From the NCBI RefSeq assembly GCF_006874465.1, contig NZ_VIRL01000011.1, forward strand, positions 124,001 through 188,000: a stretch of 64,000 nucleotides of DNA, given 5' to 3'. Of the stretch, positions 1 through 12,282 are shown one piece after another (position 1 is the stretch's first letter; each line of letters starts with the position of its first letter). The notes under the pieces are model-generated. The model made no database searches and was not told the DNA's origin. It saw nothing but the letters and a program-made list of their open reading frames with translations. The position numbers were made by a program, and so were the translations under genes. The DNA is from Microbispora bryophytorum. GTDB taxonomy: Bacteria; Actinomycetota; Actinomycetes; Streptosporangiales; Streptosporangiaceae.

Positions 1-135
1 TGGCTGACCGCGCTGGCCTTCACCCTGCTCAACGTGCCGCTCATGGTCGTGCGACTGCGCTGCGAGAACGCGGCGCTCGCCACCGCGGCCCCCGGATCCG
101 CCGCGCGCGACGCCGGAGCGGGGACCGCGGCGTGA
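1..135 (+). CDS. C-terminal end of an isoprenylcysteine carboxyl methyltransferase-family membrane protein (partial)
   Basis: Only the last 44 codons are present; the gene begins before the window. The visible end is one hydrophobic helix (LTALAFTLLNVPLMVV) followed by RLRCENAALA, which resembles the C-terminus of ICMT/YpbQ-type membrane methyltransferases (from memory of the family, not searched). In actinobacteria such genes often sit between a type III polyketide synthase and an FAD oxidoreductase, and an FAD oxidoreductase follows here with a GTGA overlap (stop 133-135, next start 132). The function assignment is therefore largely contextual. Confidence 0.55.
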   Translation, partial: WLTALAFTLLNVPLMVVRLRCENAALATAAPGSAARDAGAGTAA

Positions 136-1268
136 TCGACGTGCTGGTGGCCGGCGGCGGGCCCGCCGGGCTGGCCACGGCCATCAACGCGGCGCTGGCC
201 GGCATGGAGGCGGTCGTGGTCGAGCCGCGGCCGGGTCCGGTCGACAAGGCGTGCGGGGAGGGTCTGATGCCCACCGGCGCGGCGGCGCTGGCGGACCTCG
301 GGGTGGCGGTGCCGGACGGCAGGCCGTTTTGCGGCATCCGTTACGTGGACGGGCCGCACCGGGTGCAGGCGGAGTTCCGGGACGGCCCGGGACTGGGCGT
401 GCGCCGGACGGCCCTGCACACCGCGCTCGCCCTCCGCGCCCGGGACCTCGGCGTCCGCGTGGTGCCTGGCCGGGTGGACGCGGTGCACGCCGCCGGCGAG
501 GGCGTACGCGCCCACGTGACGGGCGGGCCGGACCTGTCTGCTCCGGAACTGTGTACTCCGGAACTGGGCCGGCCGGAACTGGGCGGGTCTGCACTGTCTG
601 GGCCGGAACTGTCTGGCCCCGAACTGTGTGGCCGGGAAATTGACGCGCGGTGGCTGGTCGCGGCCGACGGGCTGCACTCGCCGATCAGGGCGCGGCTCGG
701 ACTCGACCTGCCGTCCGGCGGCCCCCGCAGGTACGGCCTGCGCCGCCACTACCGGATCGCGCCGTGGACGGACTTCGTGGAGGTGCACTGGGCCCCCGGC
801 GGCGAGGCGTACGTCACGCCGGTGGGCGACGACCTGGTCGGCGTGGCCGTGCTGAGCAGCGAGCGGCGGACCTACGACGAGCACCTGGCGCGGTTCCCCG
901 ACCTGCTCGCCCGGTTGGACGGCCCGCCCGCCACCCCCGTGCGCGGGGCCGGGCCGCTGCGCCAGCGGGTGCGGCGGCGGGTGGCGGGGAGGATCCTGCT
1001 CGTCGGCGACGCCGCGGGCTATGTGGACGCGCTCACCGGCGAGGGGATCTCGCTGGCGCTGCTGTCGGCCCGCGCCCTCGTCGGGTGCCTGCGGGCGGGC
1101 CGCCCCGAGGAGTACGAGAACGCCTGGCGGCGCCTGTCGTGGCGATCCCGCCTGCTGACGGCCGCGCTGGTGCGGGCCCGGCGGCACCCTCCCGCGGCCA
1201 GGATGATCGTGCCCGCCGCGCGACGCCTCCCCGCGGTGTTCGGGGCGGCGGTGCGGTCGCTCGCCTGA
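132..1268 (+). CDS. FAD-dependent oxidoreductase (geranylgeranyl reductase-like)
   Basis: 378 residues, cytosolic. The N-terminus has a Rossmann dinucleotide motif (VAGGGPAGLATA), an acidic residue ends strand 2 (VVEPR), and a second flavin motif lies near residue 294 (GDAAGYVDALTGEGISLAL), as in the p-hydroxybenzoate hydroxylase/geranylgeranyl reductase group. The GTG start overlaps the preceding stop, so translation is probably coupled. With a methyltransferase-like neighbour it likely modifies a polyketide or isoprenoid product, but the substrate is unknown. Odd feature: residues 132-171 are eight degenerate pentapeptide repeats with codon use unlike the rest of the gene. Confidence 0.8.
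   Translation: MIDVLVAGGGPAGLATAINAALAGMEAVVVEPRPGPVDKACGEGLMPTGAAALADLGVAVPDGRPFCGIRYVDGPHRVQAEFRDGPGLGVRRTALHTALALRARDLGVRVVPGRVDAVHAAGEGVRAHVTGGPDLSAPELCTPELGRPELGGSALSGPELSGPELCGREIDARWLVAADGLHSPIRARLGLDLPSGGPRRYGLRRHYRIAPWTDFVEVHWAPGGEAYVTPVGDDLVGVAVLSSERRTYDEHLARFPDLLARLDGPPATPVRGAGPLRQRVRRRVAGRILLVGDAAGYVDALTGEGISLALLSARALVGCLRAGRPEEYENAWRRLSWRSRLLTAALVRARRHPPAARMIVPAARRLPAVFGAAVRSLA
525..644 (+). repeat. Eight in-frame 15-bp repeats (pentapeptide xPELx) inside the FAD oxidoreductase gene
   Basis: Eight consecutive 15-bp units read GPDLS, APELC, TPELG, RPELG, GSALS, GPELS, GPELC, GREID. They use GAA, TCT and TGT codons that are rare in the surrounding gene. The unit length keeps the frame open. 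The insertion lies between the N-terminal and central parts of the enzyme, likely a surface loop. Confidence 0.9.
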
Positions 1269-1293
1269 GCGCCGCCCCCTCCAGGACCCCGCG

Positions 1294-1389
1294 CCCTCAG
1301 AACCCCACACCCTCCGAGACCCCACACGCTCCGAGACCACACGCTCAGGCCCCATGCCCTCCGGGCCCCCACGCCCTCGGGGCCCCTCG
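1294..1389. repeat. Six degenerate 15-17-bp tandem repeats downstream of the FAD oxidoreductase stop
   Basis: Units start at 1294, 1310, 1327, 1342, 1357 and 1374 and share the pattern C(C/G)CTC(C/A)G followed by CCCC. They begin 26 bp after the TGA of the preceding gene. Confidence 0.7.
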
Positions 1390-1547
1390 ACTTCCGGGAA
1401 TCCCGGGCCCCTCGCCTGACGGGATCCCGGGGCCCTTCCCACGCGAAACAGGCACGGATCCGTGAATTGTTACAGCCGGATTCACAGTTCATGAACGCCC
1501 GTTTTTAGGGTGCCCCAGAGGCCTCATATACGCGGCAGTAATAGAAC

Positions 1548-1570
1548 CTACTTCGGCATGAATGAAGTAG
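1548..1570. promoter_or_regulatory. Inverted repeat CTACTTC-N9-GAAGTAG upstream of the kinase gene
   Basis: Perfect 7-bp arms at 1548-1554 and 1564-1570 with a 9-nt spacer, inside the AT-rich region about 90 bp before the TTG start at 1660. It could be an operator for a dimeric regulator, for example the NarL-type regulator of this locus, or an RNA hairpin. There is no direct evidence for either. Confidence 0.4.
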
Positions 1571-1659
1571 CCATATTTCAGGACCGGTATGCAAAGATCT
1601 GACGTGTGTACCGAATGGCGAGGCCGATGTTACGGCAAGGATGACTGGAGGGTCGTCGT

Positions 1660-2400
1660 TTGCCTCACTTGCCGCATATCGCCCTGGTCACACCGCTGGC
1701 CCTGCTCGCACCGCTGGCCCTGCTCGGTACGCTCCTGATCGCCGGGCTGGTCGTCCTCGTGATGCGCCTGCGCCGGCTGCGCGTGATGCAGGCCGAGGCC
1801 GCACGGCAGGCGGCGGCCGAGGCGCGCGAGCAGTTCGGCCGTGATGTGCACGACCTCGTGAGCAGCCGCCTGTGGCTGGCCAGCCTGCGCAGCGAACTCG
1901 CCTACCGGCTCGCGGACGACGACAGCCCCCTGCGACCCGCGCTGGCCGACGTGGTGCAGTCCATCCGCCAGGCGTCCGCCGACATCCGCAACGTGACCCG
2001 CTCCTTCCGGGACGTCTCGCTCGCCTCGGAACTGGCCAACGCGCGGGCCGTGCTCCATGCCTACGGAACCGACTGCAAGGTCGAGGCGACCGAGGCGGAG
2101 CTGGGCGACGAGGTGAGCGCGGTGCTTGCCATCATGGTGCGGGAGGCGGTGACCAACGTCCTGCGCCACAGCAGGGCGACCCTGTGCACGATCGAAATCG
2201 TCGTGCGTGGCGGCGTGGCGACGCTCACCGTCGCCAATGACGGCGTCGACCCCTCCGTACGACCCGGCGACGGCACCGGGCTGGACAACCTCCGCAACCG
2301 GGCGGCGGCGCTCGCCGGCACCGTGGGAACGGTCCTCGACCCCGACGGCTGGTTCCGTCTCATCGCCGAAATCCCCCGCAGGGGCGGGGACCGCCGCTGA
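1660..2400 (+). CDS. DesK-type sensor histidine kinase of the lanthipeptide locus
   Basis: 246 residues. TTG start supported by GGAG at 1647-1650. Residues 11-35 form one transmembrane segment with almost nothing outside it, so there is no obvious extracellular sensor domain. Then comes a HisKA_3-type dimerisation helix with the phosphoacceptor in GRDVHD (His64), and a HATPase domain with N-box REAVTNVLRHS and G-box GTGLDNLRNR. It should autophosphorylate and pass phosphate to a NarL/DesR-type regulator. The nearest one is at the far end of the lanthipeptide block (9389-10045). RamR/AmfR-type regulators usually have no linked kinase, so this pairing is inferred. Confidence 0.8.
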   Translation: MPHLPHIALVTPLALLAPLALLGTLLIAGLVVLVMRLRRLRVMQAEAARQAAAEAREQFGRDVHDLVSSRLWLASLRSELAYRLADDDSPLRPALADVVQSIRQASADIRNVTRSFRDVSLASELANARAVLHAYGTDCKVEATEAELGDEVSAVLAIMVREAVTNVLRHSRATLCTIEIVVRGGVATLTVANDGVDPSVRPGDGTGLDNLRNRAAALAGTVGTVLDPDGWFRLIAEIPRRGGDRR

Positions 2401-2819
2401 CACCGGCCACGCTCACCTGCCACGACCCGGCGTCCAGGGTGCGACACCCGCGCCTTCATGTGGCCCTCCACGCGTTCTGAGCGCCGGCCGGCCGCACGCG
2501 TGTGCCTCGCGCACCGCCCCCATCCCTCTCGCCGCCGCACACCAGGCCCCGCACAAGGCCCCGCACGAGGTTCCGCACAAGGGCCCGTTTGAGGCCACGC
2601 GTAAGGCCCCGCACAGCGGCGTGGCGTGTTTGACCAGCCCCTTGACCGAATAGTCCGGGTGGCATCGAGGAGATAGCCGCGAGCGGCATCACCCGTCGAC
2701 CCATGACTGCGTCACGGTTCGTTATATGCAGATTTCACAAGGCACAGTTGACGGGCGTAACTTGGCCCTTCTCCTTATTTCCGGAATTCTTTGACGTGAC
2801 CGGCCTAAGGGGACATCTT
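2401..2819. other. Intergenic region: 12-bp repeat array and lanKC promoter region
   Basis: No supported gene. Positions 2544-2615 hold a 12-bp array (listed separately). From about 2700 the sequence is AT-richer, with a TTGACG at 2748-2753 and again at 2791-2796, fitting a promoter for lanKC, but no good -10 at standard spacing is evident. An ATG at 2703 is in frame with lanKC, but the extra 39 residues do not resemble the LanKC N-terminus. Confidence 0.5.
2544..2615. repeat. Six tandem 12-bp units (AGGCCCCGCACA type)
   Basis: Six exact-length 12-bp units. Units 1 and 6 are AGGCCCCGCACA and the others are variants such as AGGTTCCGCACA and AGGGCCCGTTTG. The array lies 144 bp after the kinase stop and 205 bp before the lanKC start. 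Confidence 0.85.
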
Positions 2820-5435
2820 GTGATTAGTAAGTACGAGATTTACTGCCTCGCAGATCCCTTGTTCTACGACACCCTCGACACCAAGCGCGCGGAGCATCCC
2901 GACTTCACCATCGCGGCCCGCCCCACCCCCGACGGATGGGCGCACGCCGAGAGCGAGACCTGGCTGCACTACGCGCCGGTCGGTGCCGGTCTGCCCACTC
3001 AGGGCTGGAAGATCCACATCTCCTCCTCCGTGCCGGAGGCGGAGCGGGTGATCGCGGCTGCCTGGGACTACTGCGTACCCCGCGGGCTGGCCTTCAAGTT
3101 CCTGCGCGGCCGGCGCGTGATGACGATGCAGAACTCCAAGTACGCCTTCCGCGGGTCGAGCGGCAAGCTGGTCACCATTTATCCCGTGGACGAGGCGCAG
3201 CTGGAGCTGACGCTCAAGGAGCTCGCCGAGATCCTCGACGGCGTCGAGGGCCCGTACATCCTCAGCGACCTGCGGTACGGCGACGGCCCCCTGTTCGTCC
3301 GGTACGGCGGGTTCGCCGAGCGCCACTGCCTCGACGACAACGGCGAGCGGGTGCTGGCGATCGAGGACGCCGACGGGAACCTCGTCCCCGACGTGCGCGG
3401 TCCGGCGTTCGCCCTGCCCTCCTGGGTGACCCTGCCGGCGTTCCTCGAACCGCACCTGGCCGCGCGCAACGCGGTGACCCTCGAAGGCGTGCCGTACGAC
3501 GTGGAGAGCGTCCTGCACTTCTCCAACGGCGGCGGCGTCTACCTGGGCCGCGACAGGCGCACCGGCGAGAAGGTGGTGCTCAAGGAGGGCCGCCCGCACG
3601 CCGGGCTCGACGTCGAGGGACGCGACGCCGTCACCCGCCTGCGGCACGAGGCCGCCATCATGGAGCGCCTGGCCGGCCTCGACGTCGTGCCGGCGCTGCG
3701 CGACTACTTCACGGCCGGCGAGCACCACTTCCTGGTGCAGGAGTACGTCGACGGCACCTCGCTCAGCCAGCTCATCGCCCAGCGGCACCCCCTCACGCGG
3801 GCCGACCGCACCCCGGAGCTGGACGCGGACTACACCGAGTGGGCCATCGGGATGCTCGCCAAGGTGCGCGCCGCGGTCTCGGCGCTGCACGAGCGCGGCG
3901 TGGTGTTCGGCGACCTGCACCCCTTCAACATCCTGGTGGACGGCGACCGCGTGGTCCTGATCGACTTCGAGGTCTCCTCTCCCGTCGAGGAGCGCAGACG
4001 GCCCACGCTCGCCAATCCCGGCTTCGTGCCGCCGCGCGAGCTGGCCGGCGTCGAGGCCGACGAGTACGCGCTGGCCTGCCTGCACCTGGGGGTGTTCGCC
4101 CCGATGACCACCATGCTGCTGCAGCTCCACCGGCCCAAGGCCGCCCAGCTCGGCCGGCTGATCGTCGAGACGTTCCCCGTGCCCCCCGCGCTGATCGAGG
4201 GAGCCGTACGGACGATCCTCGGCGAGGATCCGCCCGCGCCGCAGCCGAGCCGGCTGCCCCGGCCGGACCGGCTCACCGAGGGGTGGCCCGCCGTCCGGGA
4301 CGCGCTGGCGAAGGCGATCCTCGCCTCGGCGACACCGGACCGCGAGGACCGGCTGTTCCCGGGCGACATCGTCCAGTTCCAGCCCGGCGGCGGGGTCAGC
4401 CTCGCCAACGGCGCGGCCGGCGTGCTGTACGCGCTCGCGGCGACCGGGTCGGGGCGCTTCCCCGAGCACGAGGAGTGGCTGCTCAGGCAGGCCGCCAGAC
4501 CCGGCATCGGGCCCGGCTTCTACGACGGCCTGCACGGGGTGGCGTACGCGCTGGAGGCCCTCGGCCGCCGCGAGGAGGCGCTCGACGTGGCGCGGCGATG
4601 CGCGCGGGAGCTCAGTGAGGGGCTGGATCTGAGCCTCTACCGCGGCCTGTCGGGCGTCGCCCTCGCCCTGATGCACCTGCACGACGCGACCGGCGAGCCG
4701 GAGCTGCGCGAGCGGGCCGCGCAGGTCGTGGCGGTGGTGGCCGACCGGCTCGGCGGCCCGGACGACGTGCCCGAGATCAGCGGCGGGCGGCACCCGCACG
4801 CGGGGCTGATGTACGGCTCGTCGGGACCCGCCCTGATGTTCCTGCACGCCTACGAGCGCACCGGCGATCCCGGGCTGCTCGACCTCGCGGCCACCGCGCT
4901 GCGGCAGGACCTGCGCCGGTGCGTCGGCCGCGAGGACGGTCAGCTCCAGGTGCAGCAGGGCTGGCGGACCAATCCCTACCTCGACGAGGGGTCGGCCGGC
5001 ATCGGCCTGGTGCTGGACCGCTACCTGACCCATCGGCACGACGAGATCTTCGCCGAGTCGCTGGCCGCCATCCGGCCGGTCACGACCCTGCACTACTACG
5101 TCCAGTCGGGGCTGTTCGCGGGCCGGGCCGGCATGATCGCCTGCCTGTCGTCCGGCTCCCGCCCCGACCCGGAGGCCGCCGCGGCGCAGATCGCCCGGCT
5201 GACCTGGCACGAGCTTCCCCACCAGGACGGGCTGGCCTTCCCCGGAGCCCAGTTGCTCCGCCTGTCCATGGATCTGTCCACCGGGAGCGCCGGCGTGCTG
5301 CTCGCGCTCGGCACCGCGCTGCACGACGAGCCGGTCCACCTCCCGTTTCTCGAGCCCCCCGGACGGTCTCAGGCGCAGGGGCCCCTGCGCACCGCCGCCG
5401 GGTCGAACGTCCCGACCAGCCCCGGAAGGAGGTGA
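2820..5435 (+). CDS. lanKC: Class III lanthipeptide synthetase LanKC
   Basis: 871 residues. It dehydrates Ser residues of the precursor by phosphorylation and elimination, then cyclises onto Cys. The GTG start is chosen because AAGGGGA (2807-2813) precedes it and the protein then begins ISKYEIYCLADPLFYD, as in the LanKC family. Residues about 1-220 are the lyase domain (GWKIHIS with Lys64 and His66). About 230-500 are the Ser/Thr kinase-like domain (VVLKEG lysine, GDLHPFNIL near 363, IDFE metal site near 381). About 510-840 are a LanC-like barrel (GLHGVAYALE, LYRGLSGVALAL, LDEGSAGIGL, STGSAGVLLAL). The Cys/Cys/His zinc ligands of class I/II cyclases are not visible, as expected for class III. 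The stop is followed by the first precursor gene after 6 bp, with its AAGGAGG inside the end of lanKC. Confidence 0.95.
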   Translation: MISKYEIYCLADPLFYDTLDTKRAEHPDFTIAARPTPDGWAHAESETWLHYAPVGAGLPTQGWKIHISSSVPEAERVIAAAWDYCVPRGLAFKFLRGRRVMTMQNSKYAFRGSSGKLVTIYPVDEAQLELTLKELAEILDGVEGPYILSDLRYGDGPLFVRYGGFAERHCLDDNGERVLAIEDADGNLVPDVRGPAFALPSWVTLPAFLEPHLAARNAVTLEGVPYDVESVLHFSNGGGVYLGRDRRTGEKVVLKEGRPHAGLDVEGRDAVTRLRHEAAIMERLAGLDVVPALRDYFTAGEHHFLVQEYVDGTSLSQLIAQRHPLTRADRTPELDADYTEWAIGMLAKVRAAVSALHERGVVFGDLHPFNILVDGDRVVLIDFEVSSPVEERRRPTLANPGFVPPRELAGVEADEYALACLHLGVFAPMTTMLLQLHRPKAAQLGRLIVETFPVPPALIEGAVRTILGEDPPAPQPSRLPRPDRLTEGWPAVRDALAKAILASATPDREDRLFPGDIVQFQPGGGVSLANGAAGVLYALAATGSGRFPEHEEWLLRQAARPGIGPGFYDGLHGVAYALEALGRREEALDVARRCARELSEGLDLSLYRGLSGVALALMHLHDATGEPELRERAAQVVAVVADRLGGPDDVPEISGGRHPHAGLMYGSSGPALMFLHAYERTGDPGLLDLAATALRQDLRRCVGREDGQLQVQQGWRTNPYLDEGSAGIGLVLDRYLTHRHDEIFAESLAAIRPVTTLHYYVQSGLFAGRAGMIACLSSGSRPDPEAAAAQIARLTWHELPHQDGLAFPGAQLLRLSMDLSTGSAGVLLALGTALHDEPVHLPFLEPPGRSQAQGPLRTAAGSNVPTSPGRR

Positions 5436-5441
5436 ACGCAC

Positions 5442-5573
5442 ATGGCGCTCCTCGACCTGCAGACCCTCGAGGTCCCCGGCGGCCACAGCGGTGGCGGCGG
5501 TGGCGGCAGCAACCTGAGCCTGCTCGGGTGCACCCCGCACGAGAACAGCAGCCTCAGCATCATCTGCGGCTGA
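5442..5573 (+). CDS. lanA1: SapB/AmfS-type class III lanthipeptide precursor 1
   Basis: 43 residues, starting at an ATG with AAGGAGG about 8 bp upstream. The leader begins MALLDLQTLE and contains the LLDLQ helix motif recognised by LanKC enzymes. A glycine-rich stretch GGHSGGGGGGS follows. The core has two labionin/lanthionine motifs: SNLSLLGC (Ser23-x2-Ser26-x3-Cys30) and SSLSIIC (Ser36-x2-Ser39-x2-Cys42). This parallels SapB (SxxSLLLC and SSLSITTC), so two rings are expected. Family members act as surfactant morphogens (SapB, AmfS) or as antiviral/antinociceptive peptides (labyrinthopeptins). The leader cleavage site is not visible and no protease gene is in the locus. Confidence 0.93.
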   Translation: MALLDLQTLEVPGGHSGGGGGGSNLSLLGCTPHENSSLSIICG

Positions 5574-5641
5574 CGACCCTCCCAAGAACACGAACTTCAG
5601 CCGCATCCGGCTGATGGAACCCATACAAGGAGATGATCCAG

Positions 5642-5773
5642 ATGGCGCTTCTCGACCTGCAGACCCTCGAGGTTCCCGGCGGCCACAGCGGTGGTGGCGG
5701 CGGCGGCAGCAACCTGAGCCTCCTGGCCTGCACCCCGCACGAGAACAGCAGCCTCAGCCTGATCTGCGGCTGA
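5642..5773 (+). CDS. lanA2: SapB/AmfS-type class III lanthipeptide precursor 2
   Basis: 43 residues, ATG with AAGGAG at 5627-5632. It is identical to precursor 1 except for Gly29 to Ala (SNLSLLAC) and Ile40 to Leu (SSLSLIC). Both changes lie inside the predicted rings and keep the Ser/Cys spacing. Leader and glycine-rich linker are the same. An in-frame ATG at 5633 is too close to the Shine-Dalgarno. The pair looks like a recent tandem duplication, giving two congeners or a two-peptide product. Confidence 0.93.
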   Translation: MALLDLQTLEVPGGHSGGGGGGSNLSLLACTPHENSSLSLICG

Positions 5774-5790
5774 TAGCACGCTGAGGGAGT

Positions 5791-5853
5791 CCTGGGCGGT
5801 CGTCGCGGCCGCCCAGGCTTCCGCGTTTCCGGCCCCGGCCGGAAACGCGGAAG
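5791..5853 (+). terminator. Two adjacent strong hairpins between precursor and exporter genes
   Basis: Hairpin 1 has a 9-bp stem (CCTGGGCGG 5791-5799 with CCGCCCAGG 5809-5817). Hairpin 2 follows directly with a perfect 17-bp stem (5818-5834 with 5837-5853) and a 2-nt loop. No U-run follows, which is common for actinomycete terminators. They sit 18 bp after the lanA2 stop and 47 bp before the first exporter gene. A partial terminator or 3'-end stabiliser that raises precursor mRNA over exporter mRNA is the simplest reading. Confidence 0.75.
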
Positions 5854-5900
5854 CGTTCCCGTGCCCCGTCCTGTCCGGCCTTTCCCTTCTGGAGGACCCG

Positions 5901-7682
5901 GTGAGCTCTCGTCCGGCGGACCTGCTGATCGCACGGGCCGTACGGCGCGGCGGCCCGTGGCTCGCGGCGCTGACGGCGACGGCGCTGCTGGGCGCCGCGG
6001 CCGACCTCATGCTCCCGGCGGCGCTCGGCCGCGCCGTCGACGCCGTGGTGCGGATCCAGGCGCGGGATGGAGCGGGGCCCGAGGCCGGGTCCGGGCTCAC
6101 CGGCCCGCTCACGACCGCCGCGCTGCTGGTCGCGCTGGTCGTCGCGTGCGACGCGCTGGGCGTGCTCGCGGCCGGGGTGAGCGGGGCGCGGGCGGCGCAG
6201 TGGCTGCGCTCCCGGGTGGTGGCCCACACCCTGTCCGTCGGCGCCGGCATGACCCGCCACTTCACCGCGGGTGAGATCGTCACCCGCGCCGGGGTGAACG
6301 TGGAGGAGGCCGGACGGACCCCCGAGGCGGTGGTCACCGCCGCCACGCTGATCATTCCTGCGGCCGGCAGCGTCGTCGCCCTCGCGCTGATCGACCCGTG
6401 GCTCGCGGTCACGCTCGTGGCCGGTCTGCTCCTGATCGTGGCCGTGCTGCGCGCGTTCATGCGCAGGACCACGGCGGCCTCCGGCGGCTACCAGCAGGCT
6501 CAGGGGGAGATCGCGGCCATGCTGGTGGGCGCGCTCGCCGGGGCCCGCACCATCACCGCGGCCGGCACCGAGGACCTTGAGGCGGCGCGCGTGCTCGCCC
6601 CGCTCCCCCGCCTGCGCGCCCACGGCCTGGCGCTGTGGCGCCTGCAGGCGCGGGCGGGTGTCCAGGCCGCCGTCGTCATCCCGCTTCTGGAGATCGCCGT
6701 GCTCGCCGTCGGCGGGCTACGCCTGTCGGCCGGCGGCCTCACCGTCGGGGAGCTACTCGCCGCCGCGCGCTACGTCGTGCTCGGGGCGGGCCTGGGGTCG
6801 GCGCTCGGGTACGCGGCGCGCATCGCCCGTGCCCGGTCGGCCGCCCTGCGCCTGGAGCAGCTGTTCGCCGTGCCGCCCCCGGCGTACGGGGACCGGCCGC
6901 TGCCGCCGGGCCCGGGCACCCTGGAGCTGCGCGACGTGACCGTGCGGGCCGACGGTGTGCGCCTGCTGAGCGGTGTCAGCCTGGTCGTGCCCGGCGGCAC
7001 GTGCACGGCGGTGGTGGGCCGTTCGGGCTCGGGCAAGTCGTCGCTGGCCGCCGTCGCCGGCCGGCTCGTCGATCCCGAGCGCGGCACGGTGCTGCTGGAC
7101 GGCGTGCCGCTGCGTGAGATCGGCCACGAGCCGCTGCGCCGGGCCGTCGGATACGCGTTCGAGCGGCCCGCGCTGTTCGGCGACACGCTGGGCGAGGCCG
7201 TCGCGTTCGGCCTCGCCGCACGGGACGACGCCGGTAAGCGAAGCGAGGACACGGTGCGAAGCGTAGACGCGGCGCGCAGCGAGGACGCGGTGCGGGCGGC
7301 CGCGGGCGCCGCCCGCGCCGACGCCTTCATCCGGCGGCTGCCGCTCGGCTACGCCACCCCGGCCGGCGAGGCGCCGATGTCCGGGGGCGAGATCCAGCGG
7401 GTCGGCCTGGCCCGCGCGTTCGCCCAGGCCGGCCGGCTGCTGATCCTGGACGACGCCATGTCCAGCCTGGACACCGTGACCGAGCGGCAGGTGGGGCGGG
7501 CGCTCACCGGGAGCCTGTCCGACCGCACCCGCCTGGTGGTGGCCCATCGCGTGACGACGGCGGCGCAGGCCGACCAGGTCGTGTGGCTGGACAACGGGCG
7601 GGTGCGCGCGACCGGCACGCACGAGCGGCTGTGGGACGACCCCGGCTACCGCGCGGTCTTCCGGGCCGAGGAGGCCTCGTGA
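5901..7682 (+). CDS. ABC exporter (permease-ATPase fusion) of the lanthipeptide locus, AmfA/RamA-like
   Basis: 593 residues. GTG start with GGAGGA about 5 bp upstream. The N-terminal half is an exporter-type membrane domain. The C-terminal ATPase has Walker A GRSGSGKSS, signature MSGGEIQRV, Walker B LLILDDAMSSLD and the switch histidine in VVAHR. It should work with the next gene as a heterodimer exporting the mature peptide. Between the ATPase helical subdomain and the signature there is an unusual charged insertion made of three hexapeptide repeats (7242-7295). The gene ends in a GTGA overlap with the second exporter gene. Confidence 0.88.
   Translation: MSSRPADLLIARAVRRGGPWLAALTATALLGAAADLMLPAALGRAVDAVVRIQARDGAGPEAGSGLTGPLTTAALLVALVVACDALGVLAAGVSGARAAQWLRSRVVAHTLSVGAGMTRHFTAGEIVTRAGVNVEEAGRTPEAVVTAATLIIPAAGSVVALALIDPWLAVTLVAGLLLIVAVLRAFMRRTTAASGGYQQAQGEIAAMLVGALAGARTITAAGTEDLEAARVLAPLPRLRAHGLALWRLQARAGVQAAVVIPLLEIAVLAVGGLRLSAGGLTVGELLAAARYVVLGAGLGSALGYAARIARARSAALRLEQLFAVPPPAYGDRPLPPGPGTLELRDVTVRADGVRLLSGVSLVVPGGTCTAVVGRSGSGKSSLAAVAGRLVDPERGTVLLDGVPLREIGHEPLRRAVGYAFERPALFGDTLGEAVAFGLAARDDAGKRSEDTVRSVDAARSEDAVRAAAGAARADAFIRRLPLGYATPAGEAPMSGGEIQRVGLARAFAQAGRLLILDDAMSSLDTVTERQVGRALTGSLSDRTRLVVAHRVTTAAQADQVVWLDNGRVRATGTHERLWDDPGYRAVFRAEEAS
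7242..7295 (+). repeat. Three in-frame 18-bp repeats (SEDTVR/SVDAAR/SEDAVR) in the exporter ATPase domain
   Basis: Units 7242-7259, 7260-7277 and 7278-7295 encode related charged hexapeptides just upstream of the ABC signature region. The unit length keeps the frame. Confidence 0.85.
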
Positions 7683-9487
7683 AGCGCCGCGCACCCGCGG
7701 GAGGGCGGCCGGGAGCGGCCGCCGGGCGGGTGGTCGTGCGGGCCCTGCGGCGCGAGCCCTCCCGGCTGCTGCGGCTGGCCTGCTGGTCGGTGGCGGAGAC
7801 CCTGCCCGCGCTGAGCGGCGGGTACGCGATCGCGCGGGCCGTGGACGACGGCTTCGCCGCGGGGCGGCCCGGCGCCGGCCTGATGTGGCTGGCGGTGCTC
7901 GCCGTCGCATGGGCGGTGGCCGCGGTGGCCGCCCGGCAGGTGCTGCTGCTCATCGCCGGGATCGTCGAGCCGTTCCGCGACGACCTGCTGCGGCGCGTGG
8001 TGACCGGGGCGCTGCGGGCCGGGCGGGGCGGCGACAGCGCGGCGGTCGCCCGGATGAACCACCAGGTCGAGCTGGCCAGGGACGCCTTCGGCGCGATCAT
8101 CACGGCGGTCAGGACCTTCGTGTTCACGGTGGCCGGCGTGGCGGCCGGGCTGACGACGCTGGCCCCGGAGGTCGTCCCGCTCGTGCTGACGCCGGTGGCC
8201 CTGGGGCTCGGCCTATTCCTCCTCTCCCTGCCCGCCCTGGCGCGGCGTCAGCGCGAGTTCATCGTCGCCGACGAGCGCACGGCCGCCGCGGTGGCCGCGA
8301 TGGCGGGCGGCCTGCGGGACGTGACCGCCTGCGGCGGCGAGGCGCGCGTCGCGGCGAGCGTCGGGCGGGAGGTCTCCCGGCAGGCGCGGGCCGCGCGGGC
8401 GCTGGCCCGGGTGACGGCGTCGCGGACGCTGTCGCTGGCGGTGGGGGCGTGGCTGCCGGTGGTGCTCCTGCTCGCGGGCGCGCCCTGGCTGGTGCGCCAG
8501 GGGGTCACCGGCGGGGTGATCCTCGGCTCGCTGACCTATGTCATGCAGTCGCTGTCCCCCGCGCTCGGCGGCCTGGTCCAGGGGCTCGGCGTCAGCGGCG
8601 TCCGTCTGGCCGTCACGCTGGAGCGCATCCTGCACGCGCCCGGCCCGCCCGTGCCGCACGGCGACCGGGAGCCCGGCGGGGTCCGGCTGGAGCTGCGCGG
8701 GGTGCGCTTCGCGTACGGCACGCCGGGACGCAAGGCCCCCGAGCCGGTCATCGACGGCCTGGACCTCGACGTGCCCGAGGGCGACCATCTGGCCGTCGTC
8801 GGCCCGAGCGGGATCGGCAAGTCCACGCTGGCCGCGCTCGTCGCCGGCCTGCTGACTCCGGATGACGGCGAGGTCCTCGTCGGCGGCGTCCCGGCCGCGC
8901 GGGTCCACCCGGCCGCCCGCGCGCTGATCCCCCAGGAGGCGTACGTCTTCCCCGCCACCCTGGCGGACAACCTCACGTACCTCGCGCCGGGGACGCCTCC
9001 CGAGCGGGTGGACGAGGCGGTGGCGGCGTTCGGGCTGGCGGAGCTCGCACAGCGCACCGCGGGCGGCCCGCTCGACCCGGCCGAGCTGTCCGCGGGCGAG
9101 CGGCAGCTCGTCGCGCTGGCCAGGACCTACCTGTCCCCCGCCCGGCTGGTCGTGCTCGACGAGGCGACCTGCCATCTCGACCCGGCGGCGGAGGCGCGGG
9201 CGGAGGCGGCCTTCGCGGCGCGCGGGGGCACGGTGATCGTCGTGGCGCACCGGATCTCCTCGGCCCTGCGGGCCCGGCGGGTGCTGGTCATGGACGGCAC
9301 CCGCGTCCTGCTCGGCACGCACGAGGAGATGGCGGCGTCCTCACCGCTGTACGCCGACCTGGTGGGTCACTGGGAGGGCCCGGGGAGGCTACCGGCGGGA
9401 GCGGTAGCGCAGGATGCCGATGTCACGGCCGACGGCGGGCCACAGCCAGCCGCACTCGGAGGCGATCTGGATCGCCTCGACGCGTGA
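7679..9487 (+). CDS. ABC exporter (permease-ATPase fusion) of the lanthipeptide locus, AmfB/RamB-like
   Basis: 602 residues. The GTG start at 7679 overlaps the previous stop (GTGA). It has a membrane domain, then an ATPase domain with Walker A GPSGIGKST, Q-loop PQEAYVF, Walker B LVVLDEATCHLD and switch His in VVAHR. The signature is LSAGERQLV, with Ala in place of the second residue's usual Gly, so one nucleotide site of the heterodimer may be weaker. The normal family end is near LYADLVGHWE; beyond it about 38 extra residues run antisense into the 3' end of the response regulator gene. Confidence 0.88.
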   Translation: MKRRAPAGGRPGAAAGRVVVRALRREPSRLLRLACWSVAETLPALSGGYAIARAVDDGFAAGRPGAGLMWLAVLAVAWAVAAVAARQVLLLIAGIVEPFRDDLLRRVVTGALRAGRGGDSAAVARMNHQVELARDAFGAIITAVRTFVFTVAGVAAGLTTLAPEVVPLVLTPVALGLGLFLLSLPALARRQREFIVADERTAAAVAAMAGGLRDVTACGGEARVAASVGREVSRQARAARALARVTASRTLSLAVGAWLPVVLLLAGAPWLVRQGVTGGVILGSLTYVMQSLSPALGGLVQGLGVSGVRLAVTLERILHAPGPPVPHGDREPGGVRLELRGVRFAYGTPGRKAPEPVIDGLDLDVPEGDHLAVVGPSGIGKSTLAALVAGLLTPDDGEVLVGGVPAARVHPAARALIPQEAYVFPATLADNLTYLAPGTPPERVDEAVAAFGLAELAQRTAGGPLDPAELSAGERQLVALARTYLSPARLVVLDEATCHLDPAAEARAEAAFAARGGTVIVVAHRISSALRARRVLVMDGTRVLLGTHEEMAASSPLYADLVGHWEGPGRLPAGAVAQDADVTADGGPQPAALGGDLDRLDA

Positions 9488-10045
9488 GCGGGCGCCGACC
9501 TTGGTGAGGATGCGGGACAGGTAGTTGCGGACCGTGCCCCGCGACAGCGACAGGCGGTCGGCGATCTCGCCGACGGTGGCGCCGCCGGCCGCGGTCTCCA
9601 GGACGTCGAGCTCGCGGGCGGTCAGCGGGTTGCTGTCGGCGTCGAGCGCGGCCACCGCGAGCTCGGGGTCGATGACCCGCTCTCCCTTCGCCACGCGGCG
9701 GATGCAGTCCACGAGGTGGCCCGGTGAGGCGTCCTTCACGACGAAGCCGCGCACGTTGGCGTCCAGCGCCTTGCGCAGCGCCATGGGCGTCCCGAGCCCG
9801 GTGAGGACGACGGTCCTGCAGGAGGGTAACCGGCGGTGCAGCTCGGCCGCCGCGGTGAGGCCGTCGACACCGGGCATCCCGATGTCGAGCACCGCGACGT
9901 CGGGGCGCCGCAGGCAGCCGAGCCGGACGATGTCCTCGCCCTTGTCCGCCTCGGCCACCACCTCGAGGTCGTCCTCGCTCGACAACAGAGCGACCAGCGC
10001 CTTGCGGATCAGGTGCATGTCCTCGGCGAGCATCAGTCGGATCAA
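9389..10045 (-). CDS. NarL/DesR-family response regulator of the lanthipeptide locus (RamR/AmfR-like)
   Basis: 218 residues. TTG start at 10045 with AGGGGG 6 nt upstream; this gives the canonical MIRLMLAED beginning, whereas the longer GTG start would add 20 unrelated residues. The receiver domain keeps the acidic pair (Glu8/Asp9), phosphoacceptor Asp54 (VLDIGMPG), Thr (VVLTG) and Lys (FVVKD). The LuxR HTH lies around PLTARELDVLE and RGTVRNYLS. In Streptomyces the equivalent RamR/AmfR activates the precursor operon. Here the phosphorylation pocket is intact and a kinase gene flanks the locus. The 3' end overlaps the exporter gene by 99 bp. Confidence 0.85.
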   Translation of the reverse strand: MIRLMLAEDMHLIRKALVALLSSEDDLEVVAEADKGEDIVRLGCLRRPDVAVLDIGMPGVDGLTAAAELHRRLPSCRTVVLTGLGTPMALRKALDANVRGFVVKDASPGHLVDCIRRVAKGERVIDPELAVAALDADSNPLTARELDVLETAAGGATVGEIADRLSLSRGTVRNYLSRILTKVGARSRVEAIQIASECGWLWPAVGRDIGILRYRSRR

Positions 10046-10188
10046 CCCAGACCCCCTACACGCGGTGCGAGCGGGTGCTCGCCGTTGGTGACCGCAGCGC
10101 TTCACTCACTATGCAGGTTCCGCGCGCACGCCGGGACCTCTCTACCCGAACTGTCAGCTTTAATCAGGAACCGCGTCCGAGAAAGCCG

Positions 10189-10218
10189 GACGCCCGGCCC
10201 CCAAGGGAGCCGGGCGTC
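10189..10218 (-). terminator. Terminator hairpin after the secreted-protein gene
   Basis: Perfect 10-bp stem GACGCCCGGC (10189-10198) with GCCGGGCGTC (10209-10218) and a 10-nt loop, 14 bp past the stop of the minus-strand gene at 10232. It also lies between that gene and the start of the response regulator. Confidence 0.65.
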
Positions 10219-10231
10219 ACGGTCGGGTTTC

Positions 10232-11194
10232 CTAGTGACGCACGACCTTCACGTAGTCGGTCGCCTCGGAACCCTTGAGCCCATGGCCGGCGTCGAACCG
10301 CACCGCCCAGGTGCCGGACCGGTAGGCCCGGACCTTGGTGGCGAAGTCGCCGTCGCCGTCGGTCTTGATCGTGTCCACGTACTGCCACTTGTGGGAGCCC
10401 GAGGACTGGAAGTAGACCTTGACGTTCTGCGAGCCCAGCCAGTGCCAGTTGTTCCAGTAGTTGTGGCTGTCGGAGCAGTAGCGGTCACCGCCGGGACGGC
10501 CGGACAGGTTGTTCCAGCCGTCGTAGTACCAGTCACCCCAGCACTGCGCGACCTGCAGCTTGCCCTTGAGGGTCAGCGCGCGGCCCTTGCGGACCGGCTC
10601 GGGCGTGGCGTCGAAGCCGGCGATCCGCGTCGCCTTCGGGCCCGACGGGTGCGGCGCGTGCCACTCCTTGCGCTTCACCGTGAAGGCGCGGTCGGCCGTG
10701 TACTTCTTGCCGTCGAGGCCGATCGCCTCGACGTGCACCCGGTAGGTGCCCGCCCGGTCACTCCAGTCGAAGCTGAACGAACGCGAGGCGCGGTCGAACT
10801 TCGGACCGTCGTTGTGACCGCCCTTCTCGTTGCCGAACCAGTGGTCGCCGCCGTGGTCGCCGTGGCTCCTCTGGCCCCACAGGTCGATGTCCACGCTCTT
10901 GACGTCCTTGGCCGTGACGCGAGCGGTGACCTGGGTGGACCGGCCCTTGCTCACCACGACCACGTTCGGGTCGACGTCGACCGACACGATGCTCGGGTGC
11001 GGCGTGTACGGCTTGTGCGAGTTGTGCCCGGTGGAGTGGCTCGGCGTGTGCGGCTTAAGGAAGTTGTGCCCAACGGTGGGGCTCGGCGTGGGCGACGGCG
11101 TGGGCACGACAGTGTCCGCGAAGGCGGGCGCAGTCGCGAGCGCCGTGGCGCCCATGGCGACCGCTACCAGGGTGGTAGCAGCTCGTTTCACCAT
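10232..11194 (-). CDS. Secreted protein with C-terminal beta-rich domain, unknown function
   Basis: 320 residues from ATG 11194 (GGAGAGGATC upstream). Residues 1-26 are a Sec signal peptide (MVKRAATTLVAVAMGATALA, then APAFA). A Pro/Thr/Ser/His-rich linker and a His/Asp-rich segment (SHGDHGGDHWFGNEKGGHND) follow, then a C-terminal module with two Cys and many Trp/Tyr around residues 210-260. The end (WQYVDTIKTDGDGDFATKVRAYRSGTW) matches the end of the upstream neighbour in pattern, so the two are paralogues. Probably exported to the cell surface. No enzyme motif is seen. Confidence 0.7.
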   Translation of the reverse strand: MVKRAATTLVAVAMGATALATAPAFADTVVPTPSPTPSPTVGHNFLKPHTPSHSTGHNSHKPYTPHPSIVSVDVDPNVVVVSKGRSTQVTARVTAKDVKSVDIDLWGQRSHGDHGGDHWFGNEKGGHNDGPKFDRASRSFSFDWSDRAGTYRVHVEAIGLDGKKYTADRAFTVKRKEWHAPHPSGPKATRIAGFDATPEPVRKGRALTLKGKLQVAQCWGDWYYDGWNNLSGRPGGDRYCSDSHNYWNNWHWLGSQNVKVYFQSSGSHKWQYVDTIKTDGDGDFATKVRAYRSGTWAVRFDAGHGLKGSEATDYVKVVRH

Positions 11195-11373
11195 GAGGGT
11201 GATCCTCTCCCCGTTCAGGAACGCGCCCCCGGTTTGGGGCACGCCTACGTCATAGACGTCACAAGGGAGAGAAAAGTTGCTTCACATCTTCGGAAAATAG
11301 GTCTCGGAACGATAACTTTCCCGATATTCGCGTTATGGACGCGTGGGGAGCACCTGAGGCGTCGGCGGCCCGT

Positions 11374-12282
11374 TCACACTTCTCGGCGCGGGCTGGCGTC
11401 GGCGGCATACCGAGATGTCCCTGGATATTCGGCACGCCACGCGCCCTCGCCGTCCGCACGGACGCGGGCGGAGAACCAGCCGTCCCTGCGGGTGACCGCC
11501 TCCTCGACGGTCATCCAGTGGGACGACCCCGCGGGACGGAACTGGATCCTGACCCGCTGCCCGGCGAAGGGCCGGTAGTCGACCTTCCCGACCGGGTCCA
11601 CCCGCAGCAGCGTCCCGGTGACGCGCACGTCGTCTCCGTCGCGCACCACCTTGAGCCCCTCGATCTCGGTCGTCCGGCGCAGGTTGAACTCCCCCCGGGC
11701 GACGGCCCGCTCGCCCTGCGCGTTGACCGCGGTCGCCGTGACCGTCCACGGGCCGTTCGGATACCACCGCGACAGCGGCTTGTCCGGGAGGAACCGCCAG
11801 GTTTCCCACTCCCCCGACGAGATCCGGCGGACCGGCCGGCCGTCCCGCGACGCGCCCATCACGCGGGGCATCGCGGCGGACGCCAGCCCGCCCAGGCCCG
11901 GCAGGGGCACGGTCGCGGGCAGGGCGGCACCCGGGGGGACCACCGGGTCCGGTGAGGCGGGCGGCACCGGCACCGGCACCGGCACCGCGTCGCCGGACGG
12001 CGGCGAGGGCGTCACGGCCGGCTCCGGCTCCTTGCCTGGCTCTCCTCCGGGCTCGTCGCCTTCCGAGGGGGCGCGGCCCGGTTCCAGGACGACGGAGACG
12101 CGGTCCGCTCCGCGCGCCACCACGTCGACGACCAGCCGCACCGACCCGCTCGGGCCGACCACGGGGTTGGACGGGCGCACTTCGACCGAGCGGACGGCCA
12201 GGTCACCGGAGGCGGGGGCCGGCGCGGCCGCCGCCGTCGTCGCGGTCGCGAGGACCAGCGTCGCGAGCAGAGGTCTCATCAT
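11374..12282 (-). CDS. Secreted protein, paralogue of the downstream gene, unknown function
   Basis: 302 residues from the first of two adjacent ATGs (12282 or 12279). N-terminal signal peptide MMRPLLATLVLATATTAAAA. A Pro/Gly/Glu-rich linker with PVPVPVPP lies near residues 65-120. The C-terminal domain (VTGTLLRVDPVGKVDYRPFA, then VRIQFRPAGSSHW and GAWRAEYPG) resembles the end of the next gene in the same direction. The pattern suggests an immunoglobulin-like or cell-surface beta-sandwich. The function is not recognised. Confidence 0.7.
   Translation of the reverse strand: MMRPLLATLVLATATTAAAAPAPASGDLAVRSVEVRPSNPVVGPSGSVRLVVDVVARGADRVSVVLEPGRAPSEGDEPGGEPGKEPEPAVTPSPPSGDAVPVPVPVPPASPDPVVPPGAALPATVPLPGLGGLASAAMPRVMGASRDGRPVRRISSGEWETWRFLPDKPLSRWYPNGPWTVTATAVNAQGERAVARGEFNLRRTTEIEGLKVVRDGDDVRVTGTLLRVDPVGKVDYRPFAGQRVRIQFRPAGSSHWMTVEEAVTRRDGWFSARVRADGEGAWRAEYPGTSRYAADASPRREV

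What the first reader, a model, noticed from the sequence alone, without database searches (positions are those of the whole stretch)
2820..5773. Class III lanthipeptide locus with twin SapB-like precursors differing at two ring positions
Sequence: two 43-codon genes, 68 bp apart, identical except Gly29/Ala and Ile40/Leu, both inside the predicted rings. Each core has S-x2-S-x3-C and S-x2-S-x2-C, the SapB/AmfS layout. The leader has an unusual GGHSGGGGGGS run directly before ring 1, where known leaders are acidic or mixed. Inference: a pair of congeners that may form a two-peptide surfactant or antimicrobial, with the glycine run acting as a flexible spacer or as an N-terminal tail of the product.
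Basis: partly seen in the sequence, partly recalled or inferred. Interest (0 to 1): 0.75.

Follow-up and report, generated by a model that had tools for sequence, protein, structure and literature searches.

The report
SapB-type peptide locus with own sensor
This Microbispora locus appears to make the SapB kind of peptide that helps filamentous bacteria grow into the air; its twin peptide genes and glycine run are normal for its relatives, but a sensor kinase and a regulator that looks phosphorylatable flank it, unlike in Streptomyces.

Summary
In detail: two 43-codon genes 68 bp apart differ only at residues 29 (Gly/Ala) and 40 (Ile/Leu), behind a class III synthetase. It is a ram/amf-type operon (LanKC, two RamS, two ABC half-transporters) of Microbispora; both precursors pass the SapB/AmfS and RamS cut-offs. 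The features flagged as unusual are ordinary in this lineage: 14 of 15 genomes of the genus carry 1-3 copies, 57 of 62 linkers from 30 genomes contain GGGG, and 10 of 25 multi-copy genomes encode a single core, which argues against an obligate two-peptide design.

The unexpected part lies outside the given coordinates. A histidine kinase (1660-2400) and a convergent LuxR-type response regulator (9392-10105) bracket the operon. The regulator's phosphorylation pocket is complete in 25 of 25 kinase-bearing loci and in 0 of 18 kinase-less ones, 12 of them Streptomyces-like. Streptomyces RamR is described as an orphan that works without phosphorylation. The 25 genomes are related, so independent events are few. 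Function is inferred, not shown.

The parts
1660..2400 (+). Sensor histidine kinase, one N-terminal hydrophobic stretch, HisKA_3 plus ATPase domain (outside the finding's coordinates)
   Evidence: Pfam HisKA_3 1.9e-08 over its cut-off, HATPase_c 2.2e-04 but below its cut-off; a match lies just upstream of LanKC in 25 genomes, window included; H64, N166, G207 and N210 agree with the window in at least 95% of 28 rows from 25 genomes
2820..5435 (+). LanKC, class III lanthionine synthetase (RamC/AmfT type)
   Evidence: NF038151 1105 bits, cut-off 575; RamC_N, kinase and LANC_like domains
5442..5573 (+). Precursor peptide 1 (RamS/AmfS type), G29 I40
   Evidence: NF033212 58.4 bits, cut-off 25; PF19402 RamS 50.5 bits, cut-off 24.3
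5642..5773 (+). Precursor peptide 2, A29 L40
   Evidence: NF033212 57 bits; PF19402 51.1 bits
5791..5854 (+). Two strong hairpins (5791-5817 and 5817-5854) between the last precursor and the transporters; possibly a 3' stabiliser or attenuator favouring precursor mRNA (inference)
   Evidence: Gap folds at -75.2 kcal/mol, z -4.97; the first hairpin is also predicted after the last precursor in the 10 other Microbispora gaps folded, 9 of which have whole-gap z of only -1.3 to -3.0; no Rfam match
5901..7682 (+). ABC transporter half (RamA/AmfB-like by position)
   Evidence: ABC_membrane and ABC_tran; both halves downstream of LanKC in 28 of the 35 loci
7679..9487 (+). ABC transporter half (RamB/AmfA-like by position)
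   Evidence: ABC_tran 83 bits, no ABC_membrane match listed; same place in relatives
9392..10105 (-). LuxR/NarL-type response regulator, convergent with the operon, in the place ramR has in Streptomyces (true start probably inside the ORF, near residues 18-21, where matches to relatives begin)
   Evidence: Response_reg 73 bits, GerE 58 bits; intact E28-D29, D74, T and K pocket; matches of relatives

Best explanation
A ram/amf-type developmental operon of Microbispora. LanKC binds the LLDLQ helix of two redundant RamS-type precursors; a disordered glycine linker lets the 21-residue core reach the kinase, lyase and cyclase sites; two Ser-Ser-Cys rings are formed; two ABC half-transporters export the peptide; and a protease encoded elsewhere removes the leader. 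The product is most likely a SapB/AmfS-like hydrophobic morphogen or surfactant for aerial growth. The tandem copies most likely raise dosage and supply near-isomers (14.016 Da apart) rather than two obligate partners. Expression is most likely switched on by the bracketing kinase and response regulator. Shown here: genes, family matches, conservation, synteny, pocket residues. Inferred: leader binding, ring chemistry, export, protease, surfactant role, dosage role, phosphotransfer.
For: Family hits well over the curated cut-offs for LanKC and both precursors. LanKC followed by both ABC halves in 28 of the 35 loci, with precursors between. 14 of 15 genomes of the genus have 1-3 precursors; 162 of 297 family genomes have an NF033212 match, 158 over the cut-off. 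The core is constrained: 16 of 21 positions invariant in 29 Microbispora copies; within-genome pN/pS 0.29 for the core and 0.37 for the leader (uncorrected). The linker is variable and 82% Gly, like the leader stretch without density in ThurKC (PMC10604976, passages). Ten of 25 multi-copy genomes encode one core only. A hairpin is predicted after the last copy in 11 of 11 Microbispora gaps folded. Published background: SapB, AmfS and durhapeptin act in aerial growth, and L35T abolished the activity of durhapeptin S26T (PMC13380574, abstract and sections 15 and 21).
Against: No product, expression or phenotype data were found for this locus. Ring B is one residue shorter than in the SapB-like precursors examined, so ring type (lanthionine or labionin) cannot be assigned. 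Co-occurrence of G-I and A-L cores in 7 of 12 multi-copy Microbispora genomes is above the shuffle mean, which would fit a maintained pair. One Microbispora genome of 15 (92% complete, 810 contigs) shows neither precursor nor a LanKC above the cut-off. Durhapeptin S26T did not act on its own producer strain, so activity cannot be assumed from kinship. Several relatives show no kinase or regulator at the locus, so that part is not needed by all such loci.
Confidence: 0.7

Rival explanations
1. Obligate two-peptide system: the G29-I40 and A29-L40 products work only together as a surfactant or antimicrobial pair.
For: Both types occur together in 7 of 12 multi-copy Microbispora genomes, in either gene order, against a shuffle mean of 3.65.
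Against: Single-copy genomes exist (2 of 14) and multi-copy genomes with one core sequence (2 of 12 Microbispora, 10 of 25 overall). The number of Microbispora genomes with distinct cores, 10, is not above the shuffle mean of 10.6. The shuffle ignores relatedness.
Confidence: 0.08
2. The product is mainly an antimicrobial class III lanthipeptide rather than a morphogen.
For: A class III product, andalusicin, from a cluster with seven near-identical precursors, has narrow antibacterial activity (PMC10604976, passages).
Against: The core is nearly the same across four genera, not diversified; the gene order is that of ram/amf; 14 of 15 genomes of the genus have it.
Confidence: 0.12
3. The glycine run stays on the mature peptide as a flexible N-terminal tail that helps surface assembly.
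For: The run abuts ring A and a GGGG stretch is kept in 57 of 62 precursors; stepwise N-terminal trimming of class III leaders is published (title seen in a reference list only).
Against: Length and composition vary freely between paralogs (7-12 residues), which fits a passive linker.
Confidence: 0.2
4. The kinase and regulator at the borders belong to other processes and are neighbours by accident.
For: No kinase was found at Streptomyces-like, Sphaerisporangium or Acrocarpospora loci; no regulatory data exist.
Against: Kinase and regulator were found together at the locus in 25 of 25 kinase-bearing genomes and the pocket tracks the kinase; the six nearest kinase paralogs in this genome each lie beside a regulator of the same kind.
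Confidence: 0.3

Closest known systems
ramCSAB-ramR (SapB) of Streptomyces coelicolor and amfTSAB-amfR of S. griseus
   Same: Synthetase, RamS-type precursor, two ABC half-transporters, convergent LuxR/NarL regulator in the same order (Streptomyces-like loci; convergence of ramR from PMC10090380, passage)
   Different: Two precursors here, Gly-rich linker, ring B one residue shorter, a histidine kinase upstream, and a regulator with a complete pocket
SapB/AmfS family lanthipeptides, NCBIfam NF033212 / Pfam PF19402
   Same: Both precursors over the cut-off; more than 4,000 sequences so annotated (PMC13380574 section 15)
   Different: A Streptosporangiaceae branch with a Gly-rich linker
Durhapeptin (Streptomyces durhamensis)
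   Same: LLDLQ leader motif, LanKC, transporter genes and a response regulator nearby (PMC13380574 section 15)
   Different: Two SxxSxxxC motifs and one precursor there; no kinase is named in the section read
ThurA1-A7 / ThurKC (andalusicin), Bacillus thuringiensis
   Same: Near-identical precursors for one LanKC (PMC10604976, passages)
   Different: Firmicute, antibacterial product, methyltransferase in the cluster

Membership tests
Class III lanthipeptide synthetase (LanKC) | Lyase-kinase-cyclase protein matching the class III model above its cut-off and better than class IV | tested here: met
   NF038151 1105 bits against cut-off 575; NF038150 (class IV) 407 against 650
SapB/AmfS family lanthipeptide | Precursor over the NF033212 and PF19402 cut-offs, with LLDLQ leader | tested here: met
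   58.4 and 57 bits (cut-off 25), 50.5 and 51.1 bits (cut-off 24.3)
SapB/AmfS family lanthipeptide | Two S-x2-S-x3-C motifs as in SapB-like precursors (not required by the family models) | tested here: not met
   Ring A has x3, ring B has x2; L115 and L123 have x3 twice. The family models are passed all the same, so this marks a ring variant and membership rests on the models
SapB/AmfS family lanthipeptide | Mature peptide with (methyl)lanthionine or labionin rings | not testable with these tools
   Needs LC-MS/MS
SapB/AmfS family lanthipeptide | Morphogenetic or surfactant activity | not testable with these tools
   Needs deletion and complementation
ram/amf locus | Two ABC half-transporters downstream of the precursor and a convergent LuxR-type regulator | tested here: met
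   same layout in the SapB-like loci L115 and L123
RamR (as ortholog) | Best match and grouping with Streptomyces-like slot regulators | tested here: inconclusive
   L123's regulator finds the window's first in the own genome, 138.2 against 131.9 bits (one direction only); the tree does not group them, with long branches
RamR (as pseudo-receiver) | Incomplete phosphorylation pocket, no partner kinase | tested here: not met
   E28-D29-D74-T-K all present, kinase at the locus
Two-component lanthipeptide (two obligate peptides) | Two distinct cores always present together | tested here: not met
   Single-copy and single-core genomes

The most novel reading that the evidence does not exclude
In much of the Streptosporangiaceae the SapB-type morphogen operon is wired to its own phosphorelay: a kinase and a canonical response regulator, halves of an ancestral HK-RR pair, enclose the operon. 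In Streptomyces the same slot holds a kinase-free pseudo-receiver (RamR). The operon would then have changed between phosphorylation-dependent and phosphorylation-independent control, or recruited regulators twice.
Probability: 0.45. Interest if true: 0.6.

Novelty: new variant of a known kind. Interest (0 to 1): 0.4.

Why it matters
The lanthipeptide itself is a further SapB-type member. The regulatory contrast matters more: how an atypical, apparently unphosphorylated RamR receives its signal in Streptomyces seems open from the passages seen, and relatives whose slot regulator looks fully phosphorylatable and has a likely partner kinase next door give a natural comparison that can be tested by deletion and phosphotransfer assays. 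The twin peptides differ by 14.016 Da, which mass spectrometry could mistake for methylation.

Tried and rejected
Gly run as a peculiarity of this strain: rejected, 57 of 62 linkers have GGGG (L053 dropped from this count as too different). Twins as a fixed functional pair: rejected as a rule. Link to the expressed lanthipeptide cluster 14 of Planobispora rosea ATCC 53733 (PMC4514598, passages): there a type III PKS cluster follows about 17 kb on, but in the P. rosea genome searched (JCM 3166) the one type III PKS match is on another contig (C5) than the LanKC locus (C13), so the match could not be made and no expression is claimed. Leader protease: seven M1-peptidase matches in the own genome, none shown to be the processing enzyme. 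Microbispora NAI-107 paper (PMC4709908, passages) mentions SapB as a parallel only in the passages seen. Streptomyces MNU77 paper (PMC9927152, passages): no link found. Regulator orthology with RamR: left open. Rfam scan of 1200-12000: nothing at gathering score. In one search two rows (L116, L120) came from wrong reading frames and L134 lay on a long branch; the three regulators were re-extracted and are non-canonical (His for the first acidic residue and Ala for Thr in L116 and L120; Gly for the phosphorylatable Asp in L134). The wrong rows still stand in the tree. L055's regulator stands beside a LanKC without the two transporters and groups with a paralog, so it is a doubtful member of the 18. 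No structure prediction was run.
Full report
OBSERVATION. LanKC runs 2820-5435; the precursors lie at 5442-5573 and 5642-5773, 68 bp apart. They differ at 10 nucleotides in 8 codons, two of which change the residue, G29A and I40L. Both changes lie inside the predicted rings.

IDENTITY. LanKC matches the class III model at 1105 bits (cut-off 575) and the precursors match SapB/AmfS NF033212 at 58.4 and 57 bits (cut-off 25); Pfam RamS agrees. Two ABC half-transporters follow (5901-7682, 7679-9487). The closest named relatives of LanKC are Microbispora, up to 96%, and the own genome has one LanKC over the cut-off. The layout is that of ram/amf.

HOW COMMON. Of 15 genomes of the genus (the window's included) 14 carry precursors: one copy in 2, two in 9, three in 3. 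The fifteenth has no LanKC over the cut-off either. In the family 162 of 297 genomes have an NF033212 match, 158 over the cut-off. Multiple precursors are common in class III clusters: 57% of class III precursors are the only one in their cluster (PMC7268733, passages), so 43% are not.

GLYCINE RUN. I parsed 63 precursors from 31 genomes (32 loci scanned, L045 gave none). Leaving out L053, 57 of 62 linkers contain GGGG, length is 7-12, Gly is 82%, 50 of 62 contain His, and 6 of 62 contain a D, E, K or R. Shorter runs (GGG to GGGGG) occur in several Streptomyces-like precursors. In ThurKC the leader binds as a helix and its last ten residues are not seen (PMC10604976, passages). A flexible spacer is the simplest reading; whether residues stay on the product is unknown.

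TWINS. Across 29 Microbispora copies 16 of 21 core positions never vary; the variable ones are 24, 25, 29, 40 and 41. The twins thus differ at two of the five positions where the genus varies. In 25 multi-copy genomes, 15 have at least two distinct cores and 10 have one; in Microbispora, 10 of 12 and 2 of 12. Uncorrected pN/pS in Microbispora is 0.29 (core) and 0.37 (leader) within genomes, 0.28 and 0.27 between. Against the plain reading, the G-I and A-L types co-occur in 7 of 12 multi-copy Microbispora genomes, shuffle mean 3.65, 1.45% as high; order is G-I first in the window, L030, L034 and L093, and A-L first in L032, L033 and L095. The LanKC tree puts L032, L033 and L095 in one clade, so the events are not independent. 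This is a hint at most.

RING B. Ring B is S-x2-S-x2-C in the Microbispora, Sphaerimonospora, Planotetraspora and Sphaerisporangium precursors read, and S-x2-S-x3-C in those of Streptosporangium, Planobispora, Planomonospora, Acrocarpospora and Nonomuraea harbinensis and in the SapB-like precursors. A one-residue contraction is a lineage trait.

EXPRESSION SIGNAL. The gap between the last precursor and the transporters holds two hairpins (-75.2 kcal/mol, z -4.97); the first, CCUGGGCGG...CCGCCCAGG, or a close form of it, is predicted in the ten other Microbispora gaps folded, with stem differences in L035 and L036 that keep pairing (by eye), though whole-gap z-scores there run only from -1.3 to -4.2. 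It may raise precursor over transporter mRNA (inference).

REGULATORS. Upstream at 1660-2400 is a HisKA_3 kinase; convergent at 9392-10105 is a LuxR-type response regulator. Both were found at the locus in the window, 13 other Microbispora, two Sphaerimonospora and one Planotetraspora, and in three Streptosporangium, Planobispora, Planomonospora, Nonomuraea harbinensis and two unnamed family members: 25 genomes. The N. harbinensis kinase is only 36% identical, no better than own-genome paralogs (up to 40%). Neither was seen at the locus in five Sphaerisporangium (L040-L044), Acrocarpospora (L050) or L133 (kinase sought within 4-5 kb upstream; the list was cut and its contigs were judged by coordinates). 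Neither was seen in the held flanks of L054, L056-L058, L060 and L061. L045 and L059 end before the transporters; L059 has only a weak regulator match (25%) upstream.

In 12 Streptomyces-like loci (unnamed f18/g85; L115 and L123 have precursors like SapB's as I recall it) and three f19 loci a regulator sits convergent after the second transporter and no kinase match appears in about 4 kb upstream at E 1e-3. The receiver pocket (E28, D29, D74, T, K) is complete in 25 of 25 kinase-bearing loci, 0 of 18 kinase-less rows, and 8 of 9 paralogs (three rows re-extracted with the same verdict; L055 is a doubtful row). Paralogs being canonical means the intact pocket is the default; the degenerate state is what is special. 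The near relatedness of the 25 genomes means few independent events.

COGNATE PAIR. The six best kinase paralogs in the own genome each lie within 84 bp of one of the regulators listed (match ends; five on the same strand, one on opposite strands). So this kinase kind and this regulator kind normally pair, and the operon stands between two such halves. Phosphotransfer itself is inference.

LITERATURE. RamR is listed as an orphan NarL-type regulator (PMC9739842, passages), is convergent to ramCSAB (PMC10090380, passages), and is cited as an atypical regulator that dimerises without phosphorylation (PMC12632262, passages). A 2013 survey found ramR only in streptomycetes (PMC4255298, passages). 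Orthology of the window's regulator with RamR is unsettled: first in a one-way search by a small margin, not grouped in the tree. Nine paper searches listed no paper that I recognised as describing a kinase at such loci; only listings and the passages or sections named were seen, and subscription papers are mostly not held.

VERDICT. A correct observation of a widespread peptide family; the twin and glycine features are ordinary for the lineage. The kinase-regulator bracket and its match with pocket integrity is the part worth following.

Noticed in passing
1660-2400 (+) and 9392-10105 (-): Histidine kinase and canonical LuxR-type response regulator bracket the operon; pocket integrity tracks kinase presence across 43 rows, one of them doubtful.
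   Followed up: yes
132-1268 (+) and L092:10265-11551 (upstream of the window): FAD-dependent reductase/hydroxylase-like gene and a type III polyketide synthase just upstream; a PF00195 match also lies beside the locus in M. rosea and Planotetraspora, and the two Sphaerimonospora genomes have none. Resembles an srs-type phenolic-lipid operon (recalled).
   Followed up: partly
5791-5854: Strong hairpins after the last precursor; the first is predicted in the 11 Microbispora gaps folded.
   Followed up: partly
5442-5773: Ring B is S-x2-S-x2-C in four genera but S-x2-S-x3-C in Streptosporangium and its like: a lineage-specific ring contraction.
   Followed up: partly
L094:6246-6600: One Microbispora genome (G009) has a Trp after the otherwise C-terminal Cys-Gly in both copies.
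   Followed up: no
G005:C5:147003-149462: A second class III LanKC over the cut-off in one Microbispora genome.
   Followed up: no
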